A DNA stretch of 45,525 bases, taken from an uncultured Clostridia bacterium (GTDB taxonomy: Bacteria; Bacillota; Clostridia; Christensenellales; Aristaeellaceae). Shown here piece by piece: positions 32,656 through 45,525 of the stretch. Where the stretch lies: contig CAMVFE010000018.1 of assembly GCA_947166705.1 (NCBI GenBank), positions 1-45,525 of the forward strand, in the 5' to 3' direction. The notes beneath the pieces were generated by a model. The model had not been told where the DNA came from and did not search any database. It was given only the letters and a program-made list of their open reading frames with translations. Within the stretch, counting starts at the first letter, position 1, and each line of letters starts with the position of its first letter. A program made the translations under genes and the position numbers.

Positions 32656-35600
32656 TTACTCAATGGCTTCGCCGAATCCGCGGTTCACGTTTCCGATACC
32701 CATAGGCGTCAGATATTCGTCAATGGTCAGGTTGGAAACCTTCCGATCGTCTTCCGTTTCTTCCTCCCGGACGTAGTAGACAATCACCTCTTTGTTCGTC
32801 CCGGGCATCGTGCCTTCCACCACGCCGGTCAGCGCCGTATATCTCTCAACGGCGGGCGACTCGATACGGTACGCGTCGCCGGACTTCAGCGTTCTGACGA
32901 CCTCGTCCGCCAGCCTGTTTCCATTCAGATCCAGATATCTGACGGTCAGCGTGACGTCGTTCCTGGTGTAATACACATCGATGACGGTATCTTCCGTAAT
33001 GGTCCCGCTCACCAGGCTCCGGTCAACCTGATATCCGGCCTTCACGGGGCTGGTTACGCTGTAGGAAGCGCCCGCGGTATAGGTTCCCCTGAAATCAGGC
33101 GCGGCGGTCTGTCCGTCCGCCCAGTAACGGATGGTCAGGGTGTACTTCTGGGGTTCCGGCGCGGGCGTGATGGTGAAGGTGCCCGGCGCATAGGTCACTT
33201 CGTAGTTCCCCTGATTCACGTCTCCGGTCGGGGTAATGGGATAGGTACCGACCTCCTGCGCGCCCGTGCGGCTCAGCTGGTAGCTGACCGTTTCTCCCTC
33301 CAGCACGCCATCCACCACGGCCGTCAGCTCGGGATCGGTCTTCGGATCATTGTCATAGACTTTCGTCTTGTTTTCCGCCGTCACCGTCACGGCCTTCGGA
33401 AGGATGGTCAGTTTGCCGGCCACGGTGGTGATGGTATAGTTCGCCGTCACGTCCGTATCGCCGTGCATGATCCGGTAGCCCTTGGCCACCGGGTTGTTCC
33501 CGTCGGCCGTATCCGCCACATTCCTCACGCTGCCGGATGCCGTCGCATCCAGCCGGTCGCCCTCAAGCAGCGCACCCGCCGTGAGCGTGACTCCGGTGTT
33601 CTGGTGTCCTGCTCCGTCGTAGGTCCATTCCTCGCTCGCCGCCGTGATGGTGATCGCCTGCGAGGCCGTCGTCATGGTCAGCTCGCCATTTGCTGTTGTG
33701 ACTGTGTAGTTTCCGGGTGTTCCGGTCGTGAATTTGTAGCTCGTCACCACATTCGTCACCGGGCTCTCACTCGGGAACGTAATGCTGCCCGTGACCACTG
33801 CGCTGATCACGTCGTCTCCCACCAGGCCGGCTACGTCATACCCTGCATTGCTGTGCGCGGTTCCGTCGTAGGTGAATTCTTCGCTCTTCGCCGTCACCGT
33901 CACGGCCTTCGGAAGGATGGTCAGTTTGCCGGCCACGGTGGTGATGGCGTAGTTCGCCGTCACGTCCTCTGTGCCGTGCATAATCTTGTAACCTGCCGCG
34001 ATCGGGTTGTTCCCCGCCGCCGTGTCAGACACGTTCCTCACGCTGCCCGTTGCCGTTGCCACCAGCGTATCGCCCGTCAGCAGGCTGCCTTCGCTTACCG
34101 TCACAGCCGTGTTGCTGTGGGGCAGTCCGTCGTAGGTCCACTCGTCGTCAGCCGCCTTGATCGTGATCGCCACGGACGCCTTCTTCATCGTCAGGCTGCC
34201 GTTCGCAGTCGTTACTTTGTAGTTCCCCGACGTGCCCTTCGTGAACTCGTAGCTCGTCAGTACGTTCGTTACCGGGCTCTCTCTCGGGAACGTGATGCTG
34301 CCCGTTACCACCGCGCTGATCGCGTCGTCGCCCACCAGGCCGTCCACATCATATTCCGGCCAGCTTTGCGCTGTTCCGTTGTAGGTGAATTTCTTGTCCT
34401 GGGCTGTAATCGTCACAGCCTTCGGATCAATCGTCAGCTTGCCGGGAACGACCTCGGTGATAATGTACTTCTTTCCGTTGTCAGCCTTGGTTTCATTAAG
34501 TACATATCCCGTAAAGTCAACCGTATAGTCGCCCGCGTCGGTTTCCTGAGCAATTGCGGTTACTCCGGAGAATGTTACATTAGTAAGCTTCTTCTCGCCC
34601 TGGTATACCTCATACCCGGACACGGTCTTAAGCTTTCCGTCATAAGTGTAGGTACCGTTGTTTGCTACCAGCTTTACTCCAATATACTGCGGATCATGCA
34701 GCGTTGCGAAGTAGTCCCTGTGGAAAGCAATAACCCCATTGGTGTCAGTCGGATACTCTTCCTTCCTGACGTCAAGCCATCCGCTTTCTTCCTTAAACCA
34801 GGTGGGATCTTCATGGATCCTGTCCAGTCTGCGGACTCTGGTCTTGGAGTAATCAATGCTGTACCACGCATCCAGTTCGCCGGTCAGCGGTGTCTGGCTG
34901 TACACATACGTGATGCCGTCAAGTTTCAGTGCTACATTGCTGAAATTGTATTCGCCTTCAGGATTCAGAGTGTACATGCTGGAAGGAATATCTTCGTTAA
35001 CCTTGAATTCCTTGATATCCTTGGTAATGATCTCACCGGTCTTGAGGCGGTAATACTTATTGTTCCTGTCAACGTTGAGGAAGTTGTACAGTGTCTGTCC
35101 GCTGACGTCATGCAGATAGATCTTGAAGTTCCGCTTGAAGCAGTCGATCGCGTTATTGTCTTCGAAATAATCTGTAGCCTCGTTCAGCCAGCGGGCCTTT
35201 TTATCGACCATTCCGCCGATCTTCAGGTGTGCTGCGACAACTCTAACCTTATTGGAAACAGTGTAGTAATTGCCCGTGGGAGGAACGGCCCCGGAATTCT
35301 CATCATAGTAGGAGTATGTCTTTCCGTCGTATTTAAATGTAAACCCTGCGAAATCATACTCTGCGATGAAGGAATAGTCTTTGTCCTTTTCGAGTGTATC
35401 AGGCTTATCCCTGTCGCTGGGCCGTTCTTTTTCTTTGCCCAGGCCTTCTACCCATTTTTCCAGAGGTTTGTTGGTCAGAATGCCCTCTTCCTGCTTCTTA
35501 AGGCGATACCAGCCCTTGCTTGCCCACTGGTTTCTGCCATTGTCGTAAACATACAATTCTGTCAGGTTGAACAGCGGATCCGTTGCGTCGGTGATGGTCA

Positions 35601-36144
35601 GCGTTCCGGGAACGAATGTGATAATGTAATTCACGCTGTCCGAAAAATCCAGGCTGACGGGATCGTCCGCCGCGCTCATGGACGCGGTAAAGGTCACGTC
35701 AAAGGAGCCAGGCATGTCCTGCCCGTCGCCCAGCTTCAGGCGAATCACGCCGTTCCCGGAGCCCGCGTCGCTCAGCGCCGGGGAGCTTACGGAGACCCCG
35801 CCGGCCGCGTCCATCTGAAGCGCTTCGGGGAGCCTGTATACAAGCTCCGTCTCCGCGAGCTCGGGGAATTCGTTTCCCCCGAAGCTCAGCTTAATCTGGA
35901 ATGGAGTCTCCGCGGACACGGTCCACGCGGAGCCCGCTCCGCCGCTGGCGCCCGTTCCGGACACCGCTGCCCCGGTCAGCGTCCCTTTCAGATCGTATTC
36001 CTCAACCAGGACGCCGGAACTTGACGCCGGAGGCGCGTTTCCCTGAACGTCCACCTCCCCGGCCACGGCACTGAGAGGAGAAATATTCAGCATCATCAAC
36101 AGCGCCAGAATCAGCGCCGTTATTTTCTTCCATCCATTCTTCAT
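32656..36144 (-). CDS. Secreted surface protein with MBG and MucBP domains (module A)
   Basis: A putative adhesin of 1162 residues. An N-terminal signal peptide (MKNGWKKITALILALLMMLN, cleavage near AVAG) is followed by a region of about 160 residues rich in beta structure, two copies of an unrecognised block (each ending in a CFKRNFKIYLHD or AFHRDYFATLHD pattern, within about 189-450), MBG-type Ig-like repeats including a 171-residue unit duplicated in tandem (about 578-919), two MucBP domains (YTLTIRYWADGQ from about 997 and VTLTVRYLDLNG from about 1064) and the tail IDEYLTPMGIGNVNRGFGE. There is no LPXTG motif or C-terminal membrane helix. ATG at 36144 is chosen for its signal peptide; an in-frame ATG 8 codons earlier lacks a ribosome site. 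It lies 43 bases after its partner gene. Confidence 0.85.
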   Translation of the reverse strand: MKNGWKKITALILALLMMLNISPLSAVAGEVDVQGNAPPASSSGVLVEEYDLKGTLTGAAVSGTGASGGAGSAWTVSAETPFQIKLSFGGNEFPELAETELVYRLPEALQMDAAGGVSVSSPALSDAGSGNGVIRLKLGDGQDMPGSFDVTFTASMSAADDPVSLDFSDSVNYIITFVPGTLTITDATDPLFNLTELYVYDNGRNQWASKGWYRLKKQEEGILTNKPLEKWVEGLGKEKERPSDRDKPDTLEKDKDYSFIAEYDFAGFTFKYDGKTYSYYDENSGAVPPTGNYYTVSNKVRVVAAHLKIGGMVDKKARWLNEATDYFEDNNAIDCFKRNFKIYLHDVSGQTLYNFLNVDRNNKYYRLKTGEIITKDIKEFKVNEDIPSSMYTLNPEGEYNFSNVALKLDGITYVYSQTPLTGELDAWYSIDYSKTRVRRLDRIHEDPTWFKEESGWLDVRKEEYPTDTNGVIAFHRDYFATLHDPQYIGVKLVANNGTYTYDGKLKTVSGYEVYQGEKKLTNVTFSGVTAIAQETDAGDYTVDFTGYVLNETKADNGKKYIITEVVPGKLTIDPKAVTITAQDKKFTYNGTAQSWPEYDVDGLVGDDAISAVVTGSITFPRESPVTNVLTSYEFTKGTSGNYKVTTANGSLTMKKASVAITIKAADDEWTYDGLPHSNTAVTVSEGSLLTGDTLVATATGSVRNVSDTAAGNNPIAAGYKIMHGTEDVTANYAITTVAGKLTILPKAVTVTAKSEEFTYDGTAHSNAGYDVAGLVGDDVISAVVTGSITFPSESPVTNVVTSYKFTTGTPGNYTVTTANGELTMTTASQAITITAASEEWTYDGAGHQNTGVTLTAGALLEGDRLDATASGSVRNVADTADGNNPVAKGYRIMHGDTDVTANYTITTVAGKLTILPKAVTVTAENKTKVYDNDPKTDPELTAVVDGVLEGETVSYQLSRTGAQEVGTYPITPTGDVNQGNYEVTYAPGTFTITPAPEPQKYTLTIRYWADGQTAAPDFRGTYTAGASYSVTSPVKAGYQVDRSLVSGTITEDTVIDVYYTRNDVTLTVRYLDLNGNRLADEVVRTLKSGDAYRIESPAVERYTALTGVVEGTMPGTNKEVIVYYVREEETEDDRKVSNLTIDEYLTPMGIGNVNRGFGEAIE
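33388..34413 (-). repeat. Tandem duplication, 2 x 513 bases, within the MBG region
   Basis: The sequence beginning CACGGCCTTCGGAAGG at 33388 recurs at 33901, and a diverged form starts the next segment at 34414, a period of 513 bases (171 codons). Each unit encodes one pair of MBG repeats (TILPKAVTVTA ... TITAASEEWTYDG type). The units are highly similar but not identical. Confidence 0.85.
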
Positions 36145-36187
36145 CTTGGATCCGATCCTCTCTTCCATTCAATTCCGTAAGGTCAGG

Positions 36188-38002
36188 TCAGTCTGTTTCC
36201 GGCGTCTGTCCTTCGCTGAGGGTAAACTCGGTGATTGAAGCGCCGAGATGATACGTGTTGTTGTAGGTTTCCTTCGTCACCTTGTACACATAGGTGTCGC
36301 CTGTCGCGCCGTCAATCCTGATCAGGTCCCCGGCGCCGTCCTTCCTGTAATACCACTGCAGGGTATACTCCGCCCCTTCGAAGCCGATCAGCTCCCCGGT
36401 CAGGGTAACCTCCGTGCCGGCGTAGATGATTCCGCCCTCTGGCAGGCTGGAGTGCACGATAATCTTCCTCTCCGGGGCGGGCGGGTCTTCCTTCTCCGCG
36501 GGCTCTTCACCGGTGGGGTCCCCTTCCTCCGCGGGCTCTTCGCCGGTCAGTTCCCCTTCCCCGGTCTCCTCGTCGGTCAGTTCCCCTTCCGCTTCGGGAT
36601 CCGCTTCCGGGTTCTCGCCGTCTTCGGCGTCCTCTTCCGTTCCGTCCCCGGTTTCATCCCCGGTTTCTTCGCCGATTTCTTCCCCGGTCTCTTCCCCGGC
36701 GGGAACCTCGTCCTCCGCCCCTTCGGGATTCTCTCCGTCTTTCCGCTCATCCCCGGCCGGCTCTCCGGGTTCTTCCTCGCCGGCGCCCGGGGCTTCCGCT
36801 TCGTTTCCTTCCGTTCCGGGCAGGCCTTCGCCCTCATCCCCGGCAGGTTCTTCCGCCGGTTCCCCGGCCGTCGTCTCCGCGGGTTCCTCCTCCGGCTCCC
36901 CGGTCTCCTCCTCCGCGTCCTCATCGACGATGACGCTTTCGACGATATTCTCGTTTTCCTCGATCCAGAAGTCCTCGATTTCAGGCATCTCATAGGGGCT
37001 GGAGCTGACGCACTGCCCGTCCGCCGCCTTTACGGTTACGCGGTACTGAAGGGCAGCGGATTCCTCCGTGATATAGATCTGCAGCTGAAGGCCGGTCCCG
37101 ATTTCCCGCCAGACCTGGTCCTGGGAATGGGGATCCAGGCTTTCCCAGATCACGGTATAGGGCTGCGTCGCGCGGATAACCTGCGCTTCCAGCTTCATGG
37201 TATCCCCGTAGCAGAACTGGCCGCGGGATTTCTGATAGACCTTCGCGTCCGCGTCAAAATTCAGCTCCATATCCCGAAGCTCCTGCACCACTTCTCCGGG
37301 TTCCTTATCCGTGCCGGCTTCCTGCGCCGCCTTGCGGGCAGCTTCCTCCGCGGCAGCCTGCTCAGCGCCCTGGCGTGCGGCTTCCTCCGCGGCGGCCTGG
37401 CGGGCAGCTTCTTCTTCCTCAGCCTTCCGCGCTGCCTCTTCCTCGGCTGCCTTATGCGCGGCTTCTTCCTCCGCGGCCTTCTTTGCAGCCTCTTCCTCGG
37501 CGGCCTTCCGGGCAGCTTCTTCCTCGGCGGCCTTCTTCGCAGCCTCTTCCTCCGCGGCCTTCCGGGCAGCTTCTTCCTCAGCAGCCTTCCGCGCTGCTTC
37601 TTCCTCGGCGGCCTTCCGCTCCGCTTCTTCCTTTGCCTTGCGCTCGGCCTCTTCCTTGGCCTTGCGCTCTTCTTCGGCCTTCCGCGCGGCCTCTTCCTTG
37701 GCCTTGCGCTCTTCCTCGGCCTTCCGTTCGGCCTCTTCCTTGGCCTTGCGCTCTTCTTCGGCCTTCCGCTCGGCCTCTTCCTTCGCCTTGCGCTCTTCTT
37801 CGGCCTTCCGCGCGGCTTCCTCCTCGGCAGCCTTCCGGGCAGCCTCCTCCGCGGCCTGCTGCTCGGCAATACGCTGCGCCTCCGCGGCGGCTGCCGCCGC
37901 GGCGTCAGAATCCTCGCCCATGGCGGCGATGGACAGCAGAATCAGGATCGCGGCCAGCGCCATGGCCAGGATCTTCTTCAGACTGTTCTTGTTATTCTTC
38001 AT
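36188..38002 (-). CDS. Secreted charged-helix protein with acidic stalk and Ig-like domains (module A partner)
   Basis: 604 residues, unknown function. A signal peptide ([20 protein letters not shown], ending near SIAAMG) leads to a Glu/Lys/Arg/Ala-only helix (about 40-229) predicted to be a single straight alpha helix or coiled coil. Next come an Ig-like segment (about 255-335, [14 protein letters not shown]), an acidic stalk of about 170 residues (mostly Glu, Pro, Gly, Asp, Thr), and a C-terminal Ig-like domain (about 520-600, [17 protein letters not shown]). The last domain resembles that of the partner protein at 44669-45525. The ATG has GGAGGAGA upstream. It is the first gene of a two-gene unit with the MBG/MucBP protein; the promoter is at 38133-38161. 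Confidence 0.85.
37370..37615 (-). repeat. 27-base coding repeats, about nine units
   Basis: Residues about 130-211 of the charged helix are nine near-identical 9-residue units of the form KAAEEEAAR (last base of variation: Arg, Lys or His), encoded by 27-base tandem repeats. Confidence 0.9.
37616..37807 (-). repeat. 42-base coding repeats, about four to five units
   Basis: Residues about 66-129 repeat a 14-residue unit ([14 protein letters not shown]), encoded by 42-base tandem repeats directly before the 27-base block. Confidence 0.9.
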
Positions 38003-38132
38003 CTATCTTCTCCTCCGTTGCTCTGATACACCTTTTCAGGGGAGCTTTAGTCCTCAATTTCTTCCCGGGCGTTCGTCCGGGGGTCCGTCGTATAGTCAAG
38101 CAGAAGCTACCATCCTGTAGTGAGACAACTTT

Positions 38133-38161
38133 ATTCTATCCGATAATCCGCGTATTGTAAA
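38133..38161 (-). promoter_or_regulatory. Promoter of surface module A
   Basis: TTTACA (38156-38161), a 17-base spacer and TAGAAT (38133-38138) on the minus strand. The leader is about 125 bases and contains a short CCCCCGG...CCGGG inverted repeat; no known riboswitch was recognised in it. Confidence 0.75.
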
Positions 38162-38426
38162 GTGTTTTGGGGAATCCCGCAAATGAATTCTGTGTGAATT
38201 TTATCCTCTCCGCGACGCTCCGGCCGGGATTTTTCCCTCCCTTTTCTCATCTCTTGTATCACATGGTTATTTTATAGCTTGTATACTCTCCGGCGCTGAA
38301 AGCCCCGCATCCCGCCGTCTTCCTGCTTCTTCCGGCCGTGTTTCTCCTCTTTTTTCCTGAAAATTGCGCACCTTTGCTCACTTTTTGCCCTTTTGGGCTG
38401 TTCTTTTTATGTTTTCGCTATTTATC
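38162..38426. other. Gene-free stretch upstream of module A
   Basis: Together with 38003-38161 and the terminator at 38427 this makes a 484-base gap. Beyond the promoter and terminator, the sequence is pyrimidine-rich on the plus strand, and I see no gene, RNA structure or repeat in it. Confidence 0.6.
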
Positions 38427-38457
38427 AAAAAAAGAGGAACCGCTTCTGCGGTTCCTC
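38427..38457 (-). terminator. Terminator of the solute-binding protein gene
   Basis: A perfect 10-base stem GAGGAACCGC / GCGGTTCCTC with a 4-base loop, followed on the minus strand by seven Ts. It is 29 bases after the stop codon. Confidence 0.95.
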
Positions 38458-38486
38458 CGGCTGATACCCGTTTTCGCTCTTCCGGA

Positions 38487-40454
38487 TTAATCCTCGAAAT
38501 GCTCTTCGCCCGTTTTCGGGGTTTCCTCCGCCATATCCTCCATATCGCTCAGATAGGCCGCAAGCACGGCCTCGCTCCAGGTCGCGGTGGAGGAAGGATA
38601 GTAATTGTGCAGGATCCTCGGGAAGAAATCGAAGTACACATTGGAATAAAGCGGAATCATCGGCTCCACCTCGGCGAAGCGGATCTGGAACTCAAGCCAT
38701 TTCTGGCAGTAGCCCAGCAGATCTCCGGGCTCCGTCCGACGCATTGACAGGGCCAGCCGGTACAGCTCCTCATCCTTGGCTTCCGTGTAGTTCCAGGCGG
38801 GAGCCCCGGTTTCTTCGCTCTGGAAATGAGCCGCCGGATCGAACAGCATATCGAAATTGCTGCCCAGATACAGCATGTCCGCCGTGCGCTCGCTCCGGTG
38901 GTAGAACTGATCCAGCAGCGCTTCCATCCCCAGGGGTTCGAGGCTCAGCGCGATTCCCGCTTCCTTCAGGTAGGGGATAAAATGGACTTCGAAGCTGTCC
39001 GCGATCGCATTGCCCTCCGGATAAGCCAGCTTCAGGCTCAGCTTTACGCCGTCCTTCTCCCTGATGCCGTCCGCTCCGATGCTCCATCCGTCCGCTTCCA
39101 GCAGGCGGACAGCCTCGGCGGTGTCCTTCTGATATTTCGGAATGGATTCCAGGCTCAGCGCCTGCCATGCCGCCATCTGCTCATCGTGCTCCGCCTGGGT
39201 GATCGAGCTTCCCTCTCCGGGTTCCTCCACGGGGAACATCAGCGTCCCGCTCAGCAGCTGATACATCCACTGCCCCAGGCCATAGTAGCCGTCCACCCGC
39301 ACGCCGTAGTAGCCGGTATAGTCCGTCATCAGCTGATCCTTGTCCATGCAGAAGGCGATGGCCCGGCGGACTTCAGCGCTGCTGACGGCCGGCTTCTCGC
39401 AGTTGAAGCTGATGAAGGTCAGTCCGAGCCGCGGATAGGTCGCGTTCCCGTAGGTCCCGGTAGCCGTCAGCGCTCCGGCCTCCGCGATGACATCCGCCCG
39501 CGTCACCTTGTTCAGCAGGCCGATCTCGCCCCTGCCGAGCTGGCTGACCATGGTCTCATTCTCCACCGGCACCAGCTTCAGCTTCCGGATCATGGGCTTG
39601 ACGCCCTCCGAATCCCCTTTGAAGAAGTGATTCAGCTCGAATTCGCACACGGTTCCGTCGAAAGCCGTCAGCGTATACGGCCCGCTGACCACGCTGGGAT
39701 GGCTCCTGTAGCCTGTTTCCGGATCCAGCACGGTTTTCCGGAGCAGCTCCGCCGTAAACGGGCCGTCGATATATACGCCTTCCCCGTCATCCTTCACGCT
39801 GCAGCCGGGCGCGATCACCCCGATGGGATAGGGCAGGCAGTCCAGCAGACCCAGTTCGTAGAAGAAGGGCAGATATTCATGGCGAACGGTGATCGTCAGC
39901 TGGTTCTCCCCCAGCAGCCTGACGCCGCTCAGCACGGGATTCCCGGCGGCATAATCCTCGTATCCCATAATATAGTCCTGCCGGAGGGGCGCTCCCCCCA
40001 GCGTCGCGACCACGGGGCTCATCTGGAGCAGCAGGGAAAAGGCGTAATCCCGGGCGGTGATCGGCGTCCCGTCGGAATACTTCAGATCGCTGTACAGCGT
40101 CAGCAGATAGGTCCGGTCGCCGATGCTGTCGTCCAGCACGACCGCGCCGCCCTCAGCCACAACGGTCGGATTCAGGATATACATCCCGTTCTCCGCGTCC
40201 CAGCTCACCAGGTTGTATCCGTGCAGCAGCATCCGGACATCCAGGTCGCTCGTATTGTTCCCCCACAGATCGGTGAAGAAGTTCCCCTCCACCGGAGTCG
40301 GATTTCCGACAACGAGCTCCTCGTAGCTGTAGGGCGGGAAAACGAATTCCTCTCCGTCCTCCGCCTCCAATGCGCCCTCAGCCCCGGCCAGGGCAGGAAG
40401 CAGCGCACCGCAGGCCAGCAGCGCGGCCAATATGATGCTCAGCAGTTTTTTCAT
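38487..40454 (-). CDS. Extracellular solute-binding protein, family 5
   Basis: A 655-residue ABC-importer binding protein of the peptide/nickel (SBP_bac_5) class. Family landmarks are LYSDLKYSDGTPITARDYAFSL in the first lobe, VSGPYTLTAFD, AEVRRAIAFCMDKDQL, and EVEPMIPLYSN near the C-terminus. The N-terminus MKKLLSIILAALLACGALLP is a signal peptide; either Cys15 is lipid-modified or cleavage falls after ALAGA. The ligand is probably an oligopeptide. No permease or ATPase gene is adjacent, so it must use transporter parts encoded elsewhere or have another role. It lies between the two surface modules on the same strand. Confidence 0.9.
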   Translation of the reverse strand: MKKLLSIILAALLACGALLPALAGAEGALEAEDGEEFVFPPYSYEELVVGNPTPVEGNFFTDLWGNNTSDLDVRMLLHGYNLVSWDAENGMYILNPTVVAEGGAVVLDDSIGDRTYLLTLYSDLKYSDGTPITARDYAFSLLLQMSPVVATLGGAPLRQDYIMGYEDYAAGNPVLSGVRLLGENQLTITVRHEYLPFFYELGLLDCLPYPIGVIAPGCSVKDDGEGVYIDGPFTAELLRKTVLDPETGYRSHPSVVSGPYTLTAFDGTVCEFELNHFFKGDSEGVKPMIRKLKLVPVENETMVSQLGRGEIGLLNKVTRADVIAEAGALTATGTYGNATYPRLGLTFISFNCEKPAVSSAEVRRAIAFCMDKDQLMTDYTGYYGVRVDGYYGLGQWMYQLLSGTLMFPVEEPGEGSSITQAEHDEQMAAWQALSLESIPKYQKDTAEAVRLLEADGWSIGADGIREKDGVKLSLKLAYPEGNAIADSFEVHFIPYLKEAGIALSLEPLGMEALLDQFYHRSERTADMLYLGSNFDMLFDPAAHFQSEETGAPAWNYTEAKDEELYRLALSMRRTEPGDLLGYCQKWLEFQIRFAEVEPMIPLYSNVYFDFFPRILHNYYPSSTATWSEAVLAAYLSDMEDMAEETPKTGEEHFED

Positions 40455-40474
40455 TCTTCAACCATCCTTTTCGG

Positions 40475-40498
40475 AAGAAACCCCTTCCGGGGTTTCTT
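40475..40498. terminator. Hairpin between module B and the solute-binding protein gene
   Basis: A perfect 10-base stem AAGAAACCCC / GGGGTTTCTT with a 4-base loop. The U-rich arm gives a terminator-like form on either strand. It lies 21-44 bases before the solute-binding protein start, and there is no clear promoter after it, so it may partly terminate module B transcripts while allowing read-through. Confidence 0.55.
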
Positions 40499-40577
40499 CT
40501 TTATGTCTCGTTCAGAAAACGCTGCATGGAATATCCATCTCTGTTGATTTCTTTCCGGAAACCGGAAAATCCTTTTT

Positions 40578-43500
40578 TTATTCGACCGTTTCGCCGCTGT
40601 TCCGGTTGACGGTCCCCACGCCCAGCGGCACTCCGTACTCATCGATGAAGTTGTAGCCGGGGACGCGCTTCAGTCCGGTTTCCGGATCGTCTTCCATCGG
40701 CAGGTACCATACGACAAACTCCGCGTCGCGGTTCGGCATGATGCCGTCCACCCGCGCCCGCGTCGCCGTGTAGCCTTCAATCACCGGGCTCGCGACGTCA
40801 TAGGCGTCTCCAGGCCAGTGCGTCGCGGTATAGGTGTTCGCGGCGGTGGTTCCGTCCATGAACTGGTAGTAGATCGTCAGATGAACCGGCCTGCGCGTGT
40901 AGTAGACGTCGATGACCGTATCCTCAATGATGACTCCTGCCGCAACGGGCAGGTCCACCGTGTATCCGGGCTTCTCGGGGCTGACGACATTGTAGGCATC
41001 CCCGTAATGATGGGTCGCGTGATGGTCCGGGAAGGCCTTCTGACCGTCCGCCCAGTAGCGCACGGTCAGCGTATAAAGCTGCGGGTCGGGGACTTCACTC
41101 TCGTGAATATTGTAGATGTCATATCCGGTGATCGTGGTTTCGTACCCCTCCACCGGATCCTCGGTCACCGTGTAGGTAATCGCGCGTCCGTCCCTGTACC
41201 CCGGCAGATCGCTGAAGCTGAAGCTCCATTTGTTTCCGGATCCGGTCACCGTCGCGGAAGCAGTTTCCACGCCGTCCGCCAGCAGGCGCACGGTGATGCT
41301 CTCCGGCCGGATGCCGTCCGCGTCGTCATGGTCGCCCCAGGTCTTGGTTCCGCTGATGTTGACGCGTTCCGGTACGTGGGTGTTGATCAGATCGTATCCG
41401 CTGGTTTCCGCCGTGTAGCCCGCCACCTCGTCCTCGGTGACCGAATACACGATCTCCCGGCCGTTGACATATTTCGACAGGCCGCTGAAGCTGTACGTCC
41501 AGTCGGTGACGACGGCGCTGCTCACCGTCCGCCCGTCCGCCAGCAGGTTCACCGTGATGCTGGCCGGCCGGATGCCGTCCGCGTCGTTCTCATCGTTCCA
41601 GGTCTTGGTGCCGGAGATGGTGATCACCTCAGGCGTATGGGTGTTGGTGATGGTGAATCCGTCCGTCACGTTTCCGGTCACCGCGGTGGTGTAGCCCGCC
41701 ACTGCGTTTTCCGTCACGGTGTAGGTGATTTCCTCCCCCTCCGCGTACCTGGGCAGGTTGGTGAAGGTATAATTCCAGCGGTTTCCCGTTCCGTTCTGCA
41801 CGCGGTTCCTGACCGGGGTACCGTTGGCCAGCAGGTTAATGGTGATGTTCGCCGGGCGCAGGCCGTCCTGGTTGTTCCCGTCCTGCCAGATCTTGGTCAC
41901 CGGAATATCGATCGTCTCCGGCGTATGGGTGTTGGTGATGACAAAGCCGTTCGCCGCGTTCCCGGTGATTTCGGCGGTATAGCCGGTCACCTCGTCCTCC
42001 GTGACCGTATAGACGATAGCCTTTCCGTCCTCACGGGCCTTCGGCAGGTTCGTGAATTCAAAGGCCCAGGCTCCGTTCGCGTCCGCGGTAACGGCAGCGC
42101 TGGCGGCTTCCTTTCCGTCCGCCAGCAGGCGCACGGTGATGCGGGCCGGCCGGATCCCGTCCTGGTTGTCTCCGTCCTCCCAGACCTTGGTTCCCCTGAC
42201 GGCCGTCACGGACGGGCCGAAGGTATTGATCACGGTCACCTGGTCCGACCAGGCGGTTTCGGAGATCACGCCCGTATTGTCATCCCCGGACGCGCTGTGG
42301 CTGTCCCTCGTCTCGATGCTCTTCAGCTCAACGGTTCCGAACATCGTCCCCGTGTTCAGCCGGCCGCCCTTTCCGTCGGTCTCGATGATGCTGTAGCTAC
42401 CCTCGGGAACATTCACGAAGTAAACCTTGTTCTGCGCTTTTCCGTCCTTCACGGTGATGGACTTTTCATCCATCACGTAGCTGTCCTTCCCCTTTTCCTT
42501 CAGGCGGAACCAGAAGGTGCCGTTCACGCCGGAAGCCGGCTGGCCGCCTTCGATCTCCACTTCCTTTTCCACGGCGATGGTTTTCACCGGATAGAGGAAG
42601 AAATTGTCGCTCAGCTTTCCGCTTTCAACCTTCAGCTGAACCTTTTCACTGTTCTTGTTGGCCGGAGCGGTTCCCTCCTCGGAGGAGGCGCTGAAATAGG
42701 CGCCGTTCCCGGAGGCGATCCCGGAATCATCCGTGTAGATGGTGTAGTCCCCGGCTCCGGCCACGTTCGTGGCAAAGGAGCGGTACCCGTCCGGCATACG
42801 GGTCAGCTCTTTGCTCTCGCCCGTTCCGTCGTTCGTGACGGTGATCGGGTTCAGGCCTTCGCCGTCCTGCGTGCCGCTGCTCGCGTTATACGGGAGCATG
42901 AAGGTGCCCTGCAGTACCGTTTTCTCGGTCGTATTTATCGCCAGCGTGCTGCCGTTCCCGTCCCGGGTGTCCAGCGCGAACTTCGTCCCGTCGGAGTAGG
43001 CCTGCAGCGTTCCGCCGCTCACCTCCACGGCGGCGCGCTTATTTTCCGCACCGGACCCGACGCCCGCGGCGCCCCACCCGCCGATGGCGGTCACATTGCC
43101 GCCGGTGATGGAGACGGTAGTGGCGGAATCCACCATATACTTGTATTCGCCGGATTCATTCACGGCATTATATCCTGAGCCGATGCCGGCGCCGCCCTTC
43201 TTGTCGCCCCGGGAGGATTTGGATCCCGTGGCGTTCACGGTGCCGTTGCTGATGATCACCTGGACGGTGTCCGCGCCGTTGCTTCCGCCGATGCCGGCGC
43301 CGCCGCGTGCTCCCGCTGTGGCCGTCACGCTGCCCGCGCTGATGGTGACGGTCGTCTGTGTCAGCTTCGCGCCGCTTCCCCGTCCGGTGTTTTCTCTCTC
43401 CGCCTTTCCGTTCGGAGAGCCGCCGGACCCGATGCCCGCCGCGGTTCCCCCGCCGGTCGCGTTGATCACGCCGCCGGAAATCGTCACCCTGGCATGCCCT

Positions 43501-44615
43501 TCGTAACCGCCGCCGATTCCGGCACCGCCGTGATGGTAATTTGCGTTCCCGGCCCCGCCCGTGGCAGTAATCGTTCCGCCCGTGATGTTGATGATGGCGT
43601 CCCCGTACATGCCTCCGCCGATGCCGGCGGCGTTATAGGATCCACCCTTCGCTACAATTGTTCCGCCGTTGATCTCAATATCGACAAAATAATACCCTGG
43701 ACCTTTATCACCCTGATCGCCTTTGTCCTTGCTGCTTCCTATGGAGTTGCCGATGCCCGCTCCGCCGCTGCTCCCTCCAATAGCTTCAATATCGCCGCCA
43801 TTGATAACAACCTTAGCATCAGCGTGGTTTCCTCCGCCGATTCCTGCTCCGGCGTTGCCGCCGTTCCCACCTCTGGCTTTGACTGTACCGCCGTTGATGG
43901 TAATGCACCCGAACTCGCTGATTGGCGCTTTGTATGATCCGTTCTTATAAGGTGTATTGGCGCTGCCGATTCCTGCCGCATTATCAGCGCCCTGAGCAAT
44001 AACCGTTCCTGACTCGATGACAATATCGCCGTAATATTTGCCGTTCCTGTCGCTGCCTCCGATGCCGGCGGAATTGGAACCGCCTGTCGCGTCAAGCGAG
44101 CCCGAGCCGTTGATGGTCAGTTTGGACAGGTTTGAGGTTCCTCCCCTGTCCCAGTCGACCTCCACGCCGGCGTATCCGCCGGCTCCCGTAACGGTGTTGG
44201 ATGCGCCATCCGCCAGGGTGAGCGTCGCTTTCGTTCCGGGTGTAATTCTCAATGCCGCTCCGCCCGCCGCTGCGATGTTCACGCCGGCCAGGGTAACCGT
44301 CGCGTCGCCGTCGATGACGATGCGGTGCGATGTGGTGGCCTTGTCGGCCTTGTTCTTCACTGTCAGGGATCCGCCGGTGATCGTGAGAACTCCGTCCGCA
44401 AACGTGAAGTTGTCCCCGTCCGCGGGTTCCACCTCAAAGTCTCCCGTGTCCACGGTCCCCTTCGCGAAAAGGCGTCCCGCCGTGGGATACTGCGTATCCG
44501 AAGTGATCTGCTGACTCTCTCCGCCATCCTCGGCCGTGCCGGGCAGGATCCCGAGGATCATCATGACGGCTGTCAGGACCGCAAGGATCCTTCTGGCCCG
44601 ATTATTCTTCATCAT
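40578..44615 (-). CDS. Giant secreted adhesin: glycine-rich beta-helix, Cna_B and MucBP domains (module B)
   Basis: 1345 residues. A signal peptide (1 to about 28, ending near GTAEDGG) leads to a long region (about 60-560) of repeats such as INGGTIVAKGG...AAGIGGG, typical of a right-handed beta-helix. A SpaA-like segment (about 660-795) follows, then four Cna_B repeats (about 800-1165), each with a GTKxW-type lysine and YTVTE, residues that form intramolecular isopeptide bonds in this family. Two MucBP domains come next (from about 1177, YTLTVRYWADGQ), and the tail IDEYGVPLGVGTVNRNSGE. No LPXTG motif or membrane anchor is present. GGAGGAAG precedes the ATG. It lies 53 bases after its partner gene. 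Host or polysaccharide adhesion is inferred. Confidence 0.87.
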   Translation of the reverse strand: MMKNNRARRILAVLTAVMMILGILPGTAEDGGESQQITSDTQYPTAGRLFAKGTVDTGDFEVEPADGDNFTFADGVLTITGGSLTVKNKADKATTSHRIVIDGDATVTLAGVNIAAAGGAALRITPGTKATLTLADGASNTVTGAGGYAGVEVDWDRGGTSNLSKLTINGSGSLDATGGSNSAGIGGSDRNGKYYGDIVIESGTVIAQGADNAAGIGSANTPYKNGSYKAPISEFGCITINGGTVKARGGNGGNAGAGIGGGNHADAKVVINGGDIEAIGGSSGGAGIGNSIGSSKDKGDQGDKGPGYYFVDIEINGGTIVAKGGSYNAAGIGGGMYGDAIINITGGTITATGGAGNANYHHGGAGIGGGYEGHARVTISGGVINATGGGTAAGIGSGGSPNGKAERENTGRGSGAKLTQTTVTISAGSVTATAGARGGAGIGGSNGADTVQVIISNGTVNATGSKSSRGDKKGGAGIGSGYNAVNESGEYKYMVDSATTVSITGGNVTAIGGWGAAGVGSGAENKRAAVEVSGGTLQAYSDGTKFALDTRDGNGSTLAINTTEKTVLQGTFMLPYNASSGTQDGEGLNPITVTNDGTGESKELTRMPDGYRSFATNVAGAGDYTIYTDDSGIASGNGAYFSASSEEGTAPANKNSEKVQLKVESGKLSDNFFLYPVKTIAVEKEVEIEGGQPASGVNGTFWFRLKEKGKDSYVMDEKSITVKDGKAQNKVYFVNVPEGSYSIIETDGKGGRLNTGTMFGTVELKSIETRDSHSASGDDNTGVISETAWSDQVTVINTFGPSVTAVRGTKVWEDGDNQDGIRPARITVRLLADGKEAASAAVTADANGAWAFEFTNLPKAREDGKAIVYTVTEDEVTGYTAEITGNAANGFVITNTHTPETIDIPVTKIWQDGNNQDGLRPANITINLLANGTPVRNRVQNGTGNRWNYTFTNLPRYAEGEEITYTVTENAVAGYTTAVTGNVTDGFTITNTHTPEVITISGTKTWNDENDADGIRPASITVNLLADGRTVSSAVVTDWTYSFSGLSKYVNGREIVYSVTEDEVAGYTAETSGYDLINTHVPERVNISGTKTWGDHDDADGIRPESITVRLLADGVETASATVTGSGNKWSFSFSDLPGYRDGRAITYTVTEDPVEGYETTITGYDIYNIHESEVPDPQLYTLTVRYWADGQKAFPDHHATHHYGDAYNVVSPEKPGYTVDLPVAAGVIIEDTVIDVYYTRRPVHLTIYYQFMDGTTAANTYTATHWPGDAYDVASPVIEGYTATRARVDGIMPNRDAEFVVWYLPMEDDPETGLKRVPGYNFIDEYGVPLGVGTVNRNSGETVE

Positions 44616-44668: not shown

Positions 44669-45525
44669 TTATTCAGCGGTTTCTTCGCCGGACGCTTCCG
44701 CCGCGGCGGTTTCCTCCGCCGGGGTTTCCTCCGTCGGCGCAGGCTCTTCAGCCGGCTCCTCCTCCGCGGGTTCGGGAGCCTTCAGGGTGATCATGACGCG
44801 ATAGCCGTAGGTGAAGGTTTCCTCATCGATCACATAGCGGCAGGTCATCTCGTTTCCGTTTTCAACATTCCGGAAGGTTGCGCCCTCATCCGCCGTATAC
44901 TGCCACTGGACCGTATACACATCGGAATCCAGGAACCCTTCCAGCACAGCCGTCAGCACGACTTCCGTTCCTTCGTAGACCGTTTTCTCATCCCCCAGAG
45001 AAGAGGTAATCCGAACGGTCCGGATCGGCAGCGGCTCTTCCGGTTCCTCCTCCACATAAGCAGCCAGATCCTCCAGCTTCACAAAACCGGCGACGACGTT
45101 TCCTTCTTCGGTTGTAAGCTGAATCTGCCCCCAGATTTCATCCACGGGCTTCAGCCAGAGCTGCGCGCCGGCTTCCAGTACGGCCGCAGGCTCCGCAGCG
45201 TCGTCCATGTCCGCATAAAGAGCGGTGCCGTCCTCGCGGATCACATTCGCCTGGATGTATCCCTGTTCCTGAAGCTCTTCCTCCGTCAGCACGACGGCCT
45301 GCTCTTCTTCCGGTTCGCCATCCTCCGCCGCGGGTTTCACTTCTTCATCGGATCCGTCCCCTTCGGTCTCGGCTCCGTCCTCCGCAGGCTCACCCTCTTC
45401 CGCCGCGGGTTCCGTTCCTTCATCGGATCCGTCCCCTTCGGTTTCGGCTCCATCCTCCGCGGGCTCTCCGTCTTCCGCCGCGGGTTCCGTTCCTTCATCG
45501 GATCCGTCCCCTTCGGTTTCGGCTC
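44669..45525 (-). CDS. Acidic repeat protein with SH3-like and Ig-like domains (module B partner), 5' end missing
   Basis: The frame stays open to the right edge, so the N-terminus is outside the window; 285 codons are visible. From the edge inward: tandem 25-residue acidic repeats (AETEGDGSDEGTEPAAEDG type), a segment resembling a bacterial SH3 domain (GYIQANVIREDGTALYADMD ... VAGFVKLEDL), an Ig-like domain (YEGTEVVLTAVLEGF ... YTVQWQYTADEG), and a short Glu/Pro/Ala-rich tail. The Ig-like domain matches the C-terminal domain of the protein at 36188-38002 in pattern (YxGTEVxLTxxLxGF, YTxQWxY). It precedes the module B adhesin in the same transcription unit. Confidence 0.8.
   Translation of the reverse strand, partial: AETEGDGSDEGTEPAAEDGEPAEDGAETEGDGSDEGTEPAAEEGEPAEDGAETEGDGSDEEVKPAAEDGEPEEEQAVVLTEEELQEQGYIQANVIREDGTALYADMDDAAEPAAVLEAGAQLWLKPVDEIWGQIQLTTEEGNVVAGFVKLEDLAAYVEEEPEEPLPIRTVRITSSLGDEKTVYEGTEVVLTAVLEGFLDSDVYTVQWQYTADEGATFRNVENGNEMTCRYVIDEETFTYGYRVMITLKAPEPAEEEPAEEPAPTEETPAEETAAAEASGEETAE
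45346..45525 (-). repeat. 75-base tandem repeats
   Basis: The sequence CATCGGATCCGTCCCCTTCG starts at 45346, 45421 and 45496, an exact 75-base period, with near identity between copies. It encodes a 25-residue acidic unit and continues past the window edge. Confidence 0.92.

What the first reader, a model, noticed from the sequence alone, without database searches (positions are those of the whole stretch)
32656..40650. Shared C-terminal tail on two giant secreted proteins, a candidate unknown sorting or anchoring signal
The proteins at 32656-36144 and 40578-44615 differ over most of their length but both end, after MucBP domains, in the pattern IDEYxxPxGxGxVNRxxGExxE, which runs to the last residue. 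Both have signal peptides, and neither has LPXTG, a C-terminal membrane helix, SLH or a choline-binding repeat. An exact match ending at the stop codon is the hallmark of a sorting or secretion tag. I have an impression that similar P-L-G-x-G ... N-x-G tails occur on other Firmicutes surface proteins, but I cannot verify it.
Basis: partly seen in the sequence, partly recalled or inferred. Interest (0 to 1): 0.8.

Follow-up and report, generated by a model that had tools for sequence, protein, structure and literature searches.

The report
Tail tag paired with peptide receptor
In a group of gut Clostridia, many large surface proteins end in the same kind of short peptide, and the gene next door usually encodes a peptide-binding protein of transporter origin whose sequence varies together with that peptide, which suggests a tag-and-receptor system on the cell surface.

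Summary
The shared tail is real: both window proteins match IDEYxxPxGxGxVNRxxGExxE up to the stop codon, outside the MucBP fold. Profile searches find it at the exact C-terminus of many surface proteins (MucBP, Cna_B, FctA, MBG, even sortases) of this bacterial family, and hardly in a sample of its class. The regular partner is not a protease or transpeptidase but an SBP_bac_5 gene (OppA/AppA fold) directly downstream; in the window 38487-40454, between the two tail genes. Searching 150 family genomes with the SBP itself gave 90 strong members: 83 of the 86 with readable upstream DNA directly follow a tail gene. The last ten tail residues track SBP sequence (Mantel r 0.64); the preceding twelve do not (a split made after a weak result on all 22). 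The nearest SBPs outside the family are lipobox-type with a permease gene next (10 of 11); none of 80 tail-type SBPs has one in the downstream DNA held. Best reading: the tail is a C-terminal docking peptide bound by its cognate exported OppA-like protein. Binding is inferred, not shown. Whether the pair anchors the surface protein or tethers the SBP is open; sortases carrying the tail favour tethering. Eight open-access searches showed no earlier description.

The parts
32656..36168 (-). Gene A: secreted MBG_2/MucBP protein (1162-1170 aa) ending in the tail
32659..32724 (-). Tail A, 22 residues IDEYLTPMGIGNVNRGFGEAIE at the C-terminus
32659..32688 (-). Last ten residues of tail A (the part whose equivalents vary together with the SBP)
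40578..44615 (-). Gene B: secreted beta-helix / Cna_B x4 / MucBP protein (1345 aa) ending in the tail
40581..40646 (-). Tail B, 22 residues IDEYGVPLGVGTVNRNSGETVE at the C-terminus, predicted disordered and outside MucBP
40581..40610 (-). Last ten residues of tail B
38487..40454 (-). SBP_bac_5 (OppA/AppA-fold) protein, 655 aa, next gene after B; proposed receptor of tails A and B
36188..38002 (-). Secreted K/E-rich coiled-coil protein between the SBP and gene A; a similar-looking protein lies beside the corresponding SBP in genome G017
   Evidence: by eye
44669..45523 (-). Acidic protein upstream of gene B, cut at the contig end; possible cluster member
   Evidence: inference

Best explanation
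The tail is a C-terminal docking peptide. A dedicated, exported OppA-fold protein, encoded by the next gene or in trans for some orphan tail genes, binds the last 8-10 residues of the surface protein in its peptide cleft. The upstream half (I-[DE]-[DE]-Y-x-T-P-L-G-L-G) is a more constant spacer. The last ten residues are the address, with several types in one genome (for example NHVGDCFD, HVGVCFE, NVGICFE and NxGETIE in G002). In the window one SBP (38487-40454) would serve both A and B, which would explain why those two tails are alike. SHOWN by computation: strict C-terminal position, modularity, adjacency to the SBP in both directions, shared variation of the last ten residues and the SBP, a fold like peptide-binding proteins, and relatedness to transporter receptors. 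INFERRED: physical binding, occupancy of the cleft, and the consequence, which I take to be non-covalent assembly of the SBP with adhesins, pilus-type proteins and sortases at the cell surface.
For: Tail to SBP: 66 of 86 tail matches in 150 family genomes are followed by the SBP on the same strand, gaps 16-299 bp, median 90; 52 of 63 tails in window plus L080-L138, duplicates included. SBP to tail, found by the SBP search: 90 matches of 690 bits or more in 150 genomes; 61 directly follow a profile tail, 22 more follow a gene with a divergent tail (my tally), 4 had no readable upstream DNA, 3 do not: L226 has a tail gene 570 bp upstream, L142 a gene-A-like tail gene in its cluster across a contig break, L221 none. 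Pooled over all loci fetched by either route: 73 of 77 strict. Co-occurrence: both 45, tail only 4, SBP only 15, neither 86 of 150 genomes, Fisher p 1.4e-20. Shared variation in 46 pairs: last ten residues r 0.64 (0 of 1000 permutations as high), first twelve r -0.005, preceding 126 residues 0.43. In more divergent members only the last ~8 residues (NxGDCxE) remain. SBP model pLDDT 88; best PDB match AppA with a nonapeptide, then OppA-peptide complexes. Nearest relatives outside the family: permease gene next in 10 of 11, lipobox-type N-terminus by eye in 10 of 11; none of 80 subfamily SBPs with 1 kb or more of downstream DNA (duplicates included) has a permease-like match within up to 5 kb of it, and the in-family SBP L156 that has no tail does have one. 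Unlinked, type-matched NHVGDCFD orphans in G002 and G044.
Against: No binding was measured or modelled as a complex. The SBP profile was built from SBPs beside tails. Tail types follow the SBP tree closely (NH type one change, shuffled mean 15.7), so linked inheritance explains part of the correlation; the preceding 126 residues correlate too, and the first-12/last-10 split was made after a weak result on 22 residues (rho 0.20). 20 of 86 tail matches have no SBP directly downstream. In G018 two NHVGDCFD-type orphans have no matching SBP found; its third orphan (C42) is cut by a contig end. Of 15 distinct weaker SBPs 7 have a strict tail upstream, 2 a near-variant, 1 no room, 5 none. Fifteen genomes have the SBP but no profile tail, though divergent tails were read in many of them. 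A tail-Cys disulfide is not supported: 8 of 14 SBPs with Cys-less tails keep the best candidate Cys. The conserved Lys and Arg could not be placed in the cleft because no coordinates were available.
Confidence: 0.72

Rival explanations
1. Linked inheritance only: the tail and the SBP travel as one cassette and vary together without touching; the SBP is an ordinary peptide-uptake receptor.
For: Tail types map closely on the SBP tree; the preceding 126 residues also correlate, r 0.27-0.43.
Against: The first 12 tail residues, equally linked, do not correlate. Unlinked NHVGDCFD orphans match an SBP type in the same near-complete genome, and in G044 the nearest SBP (7 kb) is of another type. No permease-like gene downstream of any of 80 subfamily SBPs checked.
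Confidence: 0.15
2. A sortase or other transpeptidase signal without a hydrophobic helix, like streptococcal AbpA (LPKTS plus a 3-residue tail, cleaved by SrtB).
For: Precedent AbpA/SrtB (passages of PMC4974636); 66 of 100 relatives have a sortase and some sit in the same operon.
Against: No sortase found in the window's genome (71% complete). The SBP, not a sortase, is the regular neighbour. Sortases themselves carry the tail. No LPXTG-like motif.
Confidence: 0.06
3. Peptide signal: the tail is cut off and sensed by the SBP, as Opp-type receptors sense peptide pheromones (recalled).
For: OppA/AppA-type proteins bind peptides of about nine residues (titles of PDB entries).
Against: No permease beside these SBPs and mostly no lipobox by eye; the tail also sits on membrane-anchored sortases and on very large frames.
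Confidence: 0.04
4. Docking with the direction reversed (a sub-question of the best reading, not exclusive of it): the SBP anchors or chaperones the surface protein rather than being tethered by it.
For: Window A and B lack any known anchor; the ordinary SBP_5 proteins of these genomes also mostly lack a lipobox, so another retention route may exist that could serve as the anchor.
Against: Sortase-type tail proteins have their own N-terminal membrane segment. The SBPs show no anchor of their own.
Confidence: 0.35
5. DNA or RNA level element for expression of the next gene, or the last strand of MucBP.
For: Position just before the SBP gene; the window tails follow MucBP.
Against: Conserved residues use several synonymous codons among 62 distinct tails; gaps vary; orphans exist; tails follow Cna_B, FctA, MBG and others; the tail is disordered outside MucBP in the model.
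Confidence: 0.01

Closest known systems
Oligopeptide-binding proteins AppA/OppA (SBP_bac_5, PF00496)
   Same: Fold and Pfam family; best PDB matches are peptide complexes including a nonapeptide.
   Different: No permease gene downstream in the members checked, mostly no lipobox; paired with a surface-protein gene; one to five paralogues per genome.
AbpA/SrtB short sorting signal of oral streptococci (PMC4974636, passages seen)
   Same: Short C-terminal signal without hydrophobic helix, partner encoded next door.
   Different: Partner is a sortase and the signal is LPKTS; here the partner is an OppA-fold protein and there is no such motif.
Cohesin-dockerin pairing of cellulosomes (recalled)
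   Same: C-terminal module recognised non-covalently by a dedicated partner, with specificity types.
   Different: Here the tag is a short disordered peptide and the partner resembles a transport receptor; no Pfam match to dockerin or cohesin in the proteins scanned.
LPXTG cell-wall sorting signals
   Same: C-terminal, on Cna_B/MucBP surface proteins.
   Different: No LPXTG, no helix, no basic tail; ends in an acidic residue in nearly all cases.

Membership tests
LPXTG sortase substrate | LPXTG-like motif plus hydrophobic helix plus charged tail | tested here: not met
   Sequences
Named C-terminal sorting signals in NCBIfam | Match above curated cut-off | tested here: not met
   only Por_Secre_tail for gene A, 9.9 bits against 23, and not at the C-terminus
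MucBP domain (tail as its last strand) | Tail part of the domain fold | tested here: not met
   domain ends before the tail; pLDDT under 50 for residues 167-190
SBP_bac_5 (partner protein) | Pfam match above cut-off and OppA fold | tested here: met
   104.8 bits against 32.4
Opp/Dpp ABC transport receptor (partner protein) | Lipobox anchor | tested here: inconclusive
   N-termini read by eye: mostly SPase-I-like with no lipobox; a few, among them the window's, have a Cys near the expected site that also fits AxA cleavage. Outside the family 10 of 11 look lipobox-type; the N-terminus of L206 was not seen that far
Opp/Dpp ABC transport receptor (partner protein) | Permease gene next in the operon | tested here: not met
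   none of 80 subfamily SBPs with 1 kb or more of downstream DNA has a permease-like match within up to 5 kb; outgroup 10 of 11 do. A permease elsewhere in the genome is not excluded
Opp/Dpp receptor (partner protein) | Binds a peptide in the cleft | not testable with these tools
   No complex modelling and no coordinates available
AbpA-type short sortase signal | Sortase encoded next to the gene and LP motif | tested here: not met
   tail sequences

The most novel reading that the evidence does not exclude
A peptide-address system on the bacterial surface: a transporter receptor was recruited into a set of paralogous, mutually specific receptors that read the last ten residues of adhesins, pilus-type proteins and sortases, several address types working side by side in one cell, some serving several giant proteins in trans.
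Probability: 0.55. Interest if true: 0.9.

Novelty: categorically new. Interest (0 to 1): 0.8.

Why it matters
Surface display in Gram-positive bacteria is usually explained by covalent sortase anchoring, lipid anchoring or wall-binding repeats (general knowledge). A C-terminal peptide read by a dedicated OppA-fold protein would be a further principle, show how a nutrient receptor becomes a structural partner, give a function to SBP genes that annotation calls transporters, and supply natural short tags with matched binders. It is directly testable with a synthetic peptide and one purified protein.

Tried and rejected
MucBP strand: rejected. Sortase signal: not favoured. DNA-level element: rejected by synonymous codon variety. 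Tail-Cys to SBP disulfide: not supported (the strongest association, column 583, runs the other way). Lipid on the tail Cys: considered because the genus has several Lgt-like paralogues, not favoured because 14 of 83 paired tails lack Cys, window B among them. Charge complementarity of tail residue -4 with SBP Arg 523/572: strong in counts, but the V/I types look like few clades, so not used as independent evidence. The rank correlation on all 22 tail residues was weak (rho 0.20, 32 of 2000 permutations as high); the contrast of last 10 with first 12 came afterwards. G017 was first noted as an unlinked pair; one search showed that its two contig ends carry the same stretch of the gene-A-like gene, so that claim was withdrawn. 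The permease scan had little downstream DNA for most loci; one search replaced it. Lipobox absence is not diagnostic, since ordinary SBP_5 proteins of these genomes mostly lack it too.

Counts: the strong-SBP genome class used 560 bits or more plus six named lower rows; the 86 tail places and the SBP places were copied by hand from the tables, and one search scored at most 7 candidates per genome. In one search, 6 of 52 pairs were dropped as duplicates or fragments. The strict tail pattern was run on 2417 closed six-frame ORFs of 150 aa or more in the fetched loci (duplicates included): 182 match, 27 of them not SBP-adjacent; by my reading five of the 27 are no tails (one is an SBP's own end).
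Full report
OBSERVATION. The two minus-strand genes end exactly as reported: IDEYLTPMGIGNVNRGFGEAIE (A, 32656-36168 or 36144) and IDEYGVPLGVGTVNRNSGETVE (B, 40578-44615). A carries MBG_2 and MucBP domains; B carries beta-helix, Cna_B and MucBP. No NCBIfam sorting signal matches above its cut-off. In a model of the last 190 residues of B the tail is disordered and follows the last MucBP strand.

DISTRIBUTION. A two-tail profile found C-terminal matches in relatives; most weak matches were partial and not inspected. A 16-tail profile hit 3 of 392 genomes of the class at E<=0.01: the window's own and two with partial matches of 13 and 15 positions, one internal to its frame, one not inspected. 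It hit 49 of 150 genomes of the family. The phylum was not searched. Named relatives (37 loci) are mostly gut and rumen MAGs labelled Clostridia or Clostridiales, with a few labelled Christensenella, Christensenellaceae, Lachnospiraceae or Flexilinea; a more exact family name would be recall and was not tested. The element ends at the last residue in 56 of 62 matches in L082-L138. It follows MucBP, Cna_B, FctA, MBG, DUF7507 or DUF7601/5979 domains, so it is modular; several short tail proteins have no Pfam match. In six loci (L084, L088, L107, L119, L144, L145) the tail protein has a sortase domain near its N-terminus, followed by Cna_B, MBG or MucBP domains. 42 of 48 tail ORFs with complete 5' ends show an N-terminal signal or membrane segment by a crude rule.

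THE PARTNER. Next to B lies an SBP_bac_5 gene (38487-40454). The arrangement recurs: 52 of 63 tails in window plus L080-L138 and 66 of 86 tail matches in 150 family genomes. The fair converse starts from the SBP: in nine genomes 30 of 31 subfamily SBPs follow a tail gene directly (my count), and of 90 matches of 690 bits or more in 150 genomes 61 follow a profile tail and 22 a divergent tail read; 4 have no readable upstream DNA; 3 do not. Of these 3, L226 has its tail gene 570 bp upstream, L142 has a gene-A-like tail gene in its cluster beyond a contig break, and L221 has none. In the most divergent members only the last eight or so residues (NxGDCxE) are kept. Fifteen distinct weaker SBPs have 7 strict tails, 2 near-variants, 1 contig edge and 5 without; one of the five, L156, has a permease gene next instead. 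Across 150 genomes tail and SBP agree: 45 both, 4 tail only, 15 SBP only, 86 neither.

SHARED VARIATION. In 46 pairs SBP identity correlates with similarity of the last ten tail residues (Mantel r 0.64, none of 1000 permutations as high), not with the first twelve (r -0.005), and less with the preceding 126 residues (0.43, or 0.27 without close pairs). The split was chosen after a weak result on all 22 residues. On a tree of 83 SBPs the NH tail type changes once (shuffled mean 15.7) and the class of residue -4 five times (31.4); Cys at -3 changes nine times (13.3) and residue -6 hardly beats chance (27 against 31.1). This is what a receptor-ligand pair would show, but linked inheritance shows it too. 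Evidence beyond linkage: in G002 and G044 (two contigs each), NHVGDCFD orphans at 187,726 and 1,645,474, and at 678,951 and about 3,030,350, lie from 20 kb to about 1.5 Mb from the SBP of that type (1,681,894 and 698,661), and the SBP nearest to the last of them is of another type. Against: G018 has two NHVGDCFD-type orphans without such an SBP found.

NATURE OF THE SBP. The window SBP is predicted with mean pLDDT 88. Its best PDB match is AppA with a nonapeptide (1xoc), followed by OppA-peptide complexes. In the class sample, 11 of 391 genomes other than the window's hold the nearest relatives at E<=1e-60; 10 of these 11 have a permease-like gene next and 10 of 11 a lipobox-type N-terminus by eye. 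None of 80 subfamily SBPs with at least 1 kb of downstream DNA (duplicates included) has a permease-like match within up to 5 kb. Lys316 is 99% conserved in 91 in-group sequences and not among the four commonest outgroup residues; Arg342 and Arg363 are invariant in both groups. That these line the cleft is a guess.

MECHANISM. I infer that the SBP holds the C-terminal ten residues of its surface protein in the peptide cleft. In the window one SBP would serve both A and B, which would explain why their tails are alike. In sortase-type tail proteins, which have their own membrane segment, the tail would more likely tether the SBP; for the others the SBP might instead retain or escort the surface protein. 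Several loci also hold signal peptidase I, sortase and pilin-like genes, pointing to surface assembly.

COMPARISON AND NOVELTY. AbpA/SrtB is the nearest precedent for a short helix-free C-terminal signal (passages of PMC4974636), but its partner is a sortase. Eight searches of the open-access library (listings only, except the AbpA passages) showed no description of the tail or of an SBP reading surface-protein tails. Most subscription papers are not in that library.

Noticed in passing
L084, L088, L107, L119, L144, L145: Sortase domain fused to Cna_B, MBG or MucBP domains and ending in the tail: sortases with a stalk and a docking tail.
   Followed up: partly
L097, L100, L103, L108, L120, L121, L123, L138, L146, L149, L151: Recurrent genes around the pair: sortase-like, tail protein, SBP, a small protein (121-204 aa) and one or two signal peptidase I genes; an LPXTG-type pilin gene nearby in L120, L121 and L123.
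   Followed up: partly
L161-L190 (G000, G002, G044, G493): Ordinary SBP_5 proteins of this family also mostly lack a lipobox although Lgt is present; how they are kept at the membrane is unclear.
   Followed up: no
G001, G002, G022, G035, G044: Six to seven Lgt-like matches per genome in this genus (four in the incomplete window genome), against one in G493 of the same family.
   Followed up: no
window 36188-38002 and 44669-45523; L193:7305-8999: Secreted K/E-rich coiled-coil protein and an acidic protein with a similar-looking C-terminal stretch; G017 has a similar coiled-coil protein beside its window-type SBP (by eye).
   Followed up: partly
L131:298-2904, L117:9380-9814, L124:4577-7891: First half of the tail (I-[DE]-[DE]-Y-x-T-P-L-G) found away from the C-terminus without the last ten residues.
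   Followed up: no
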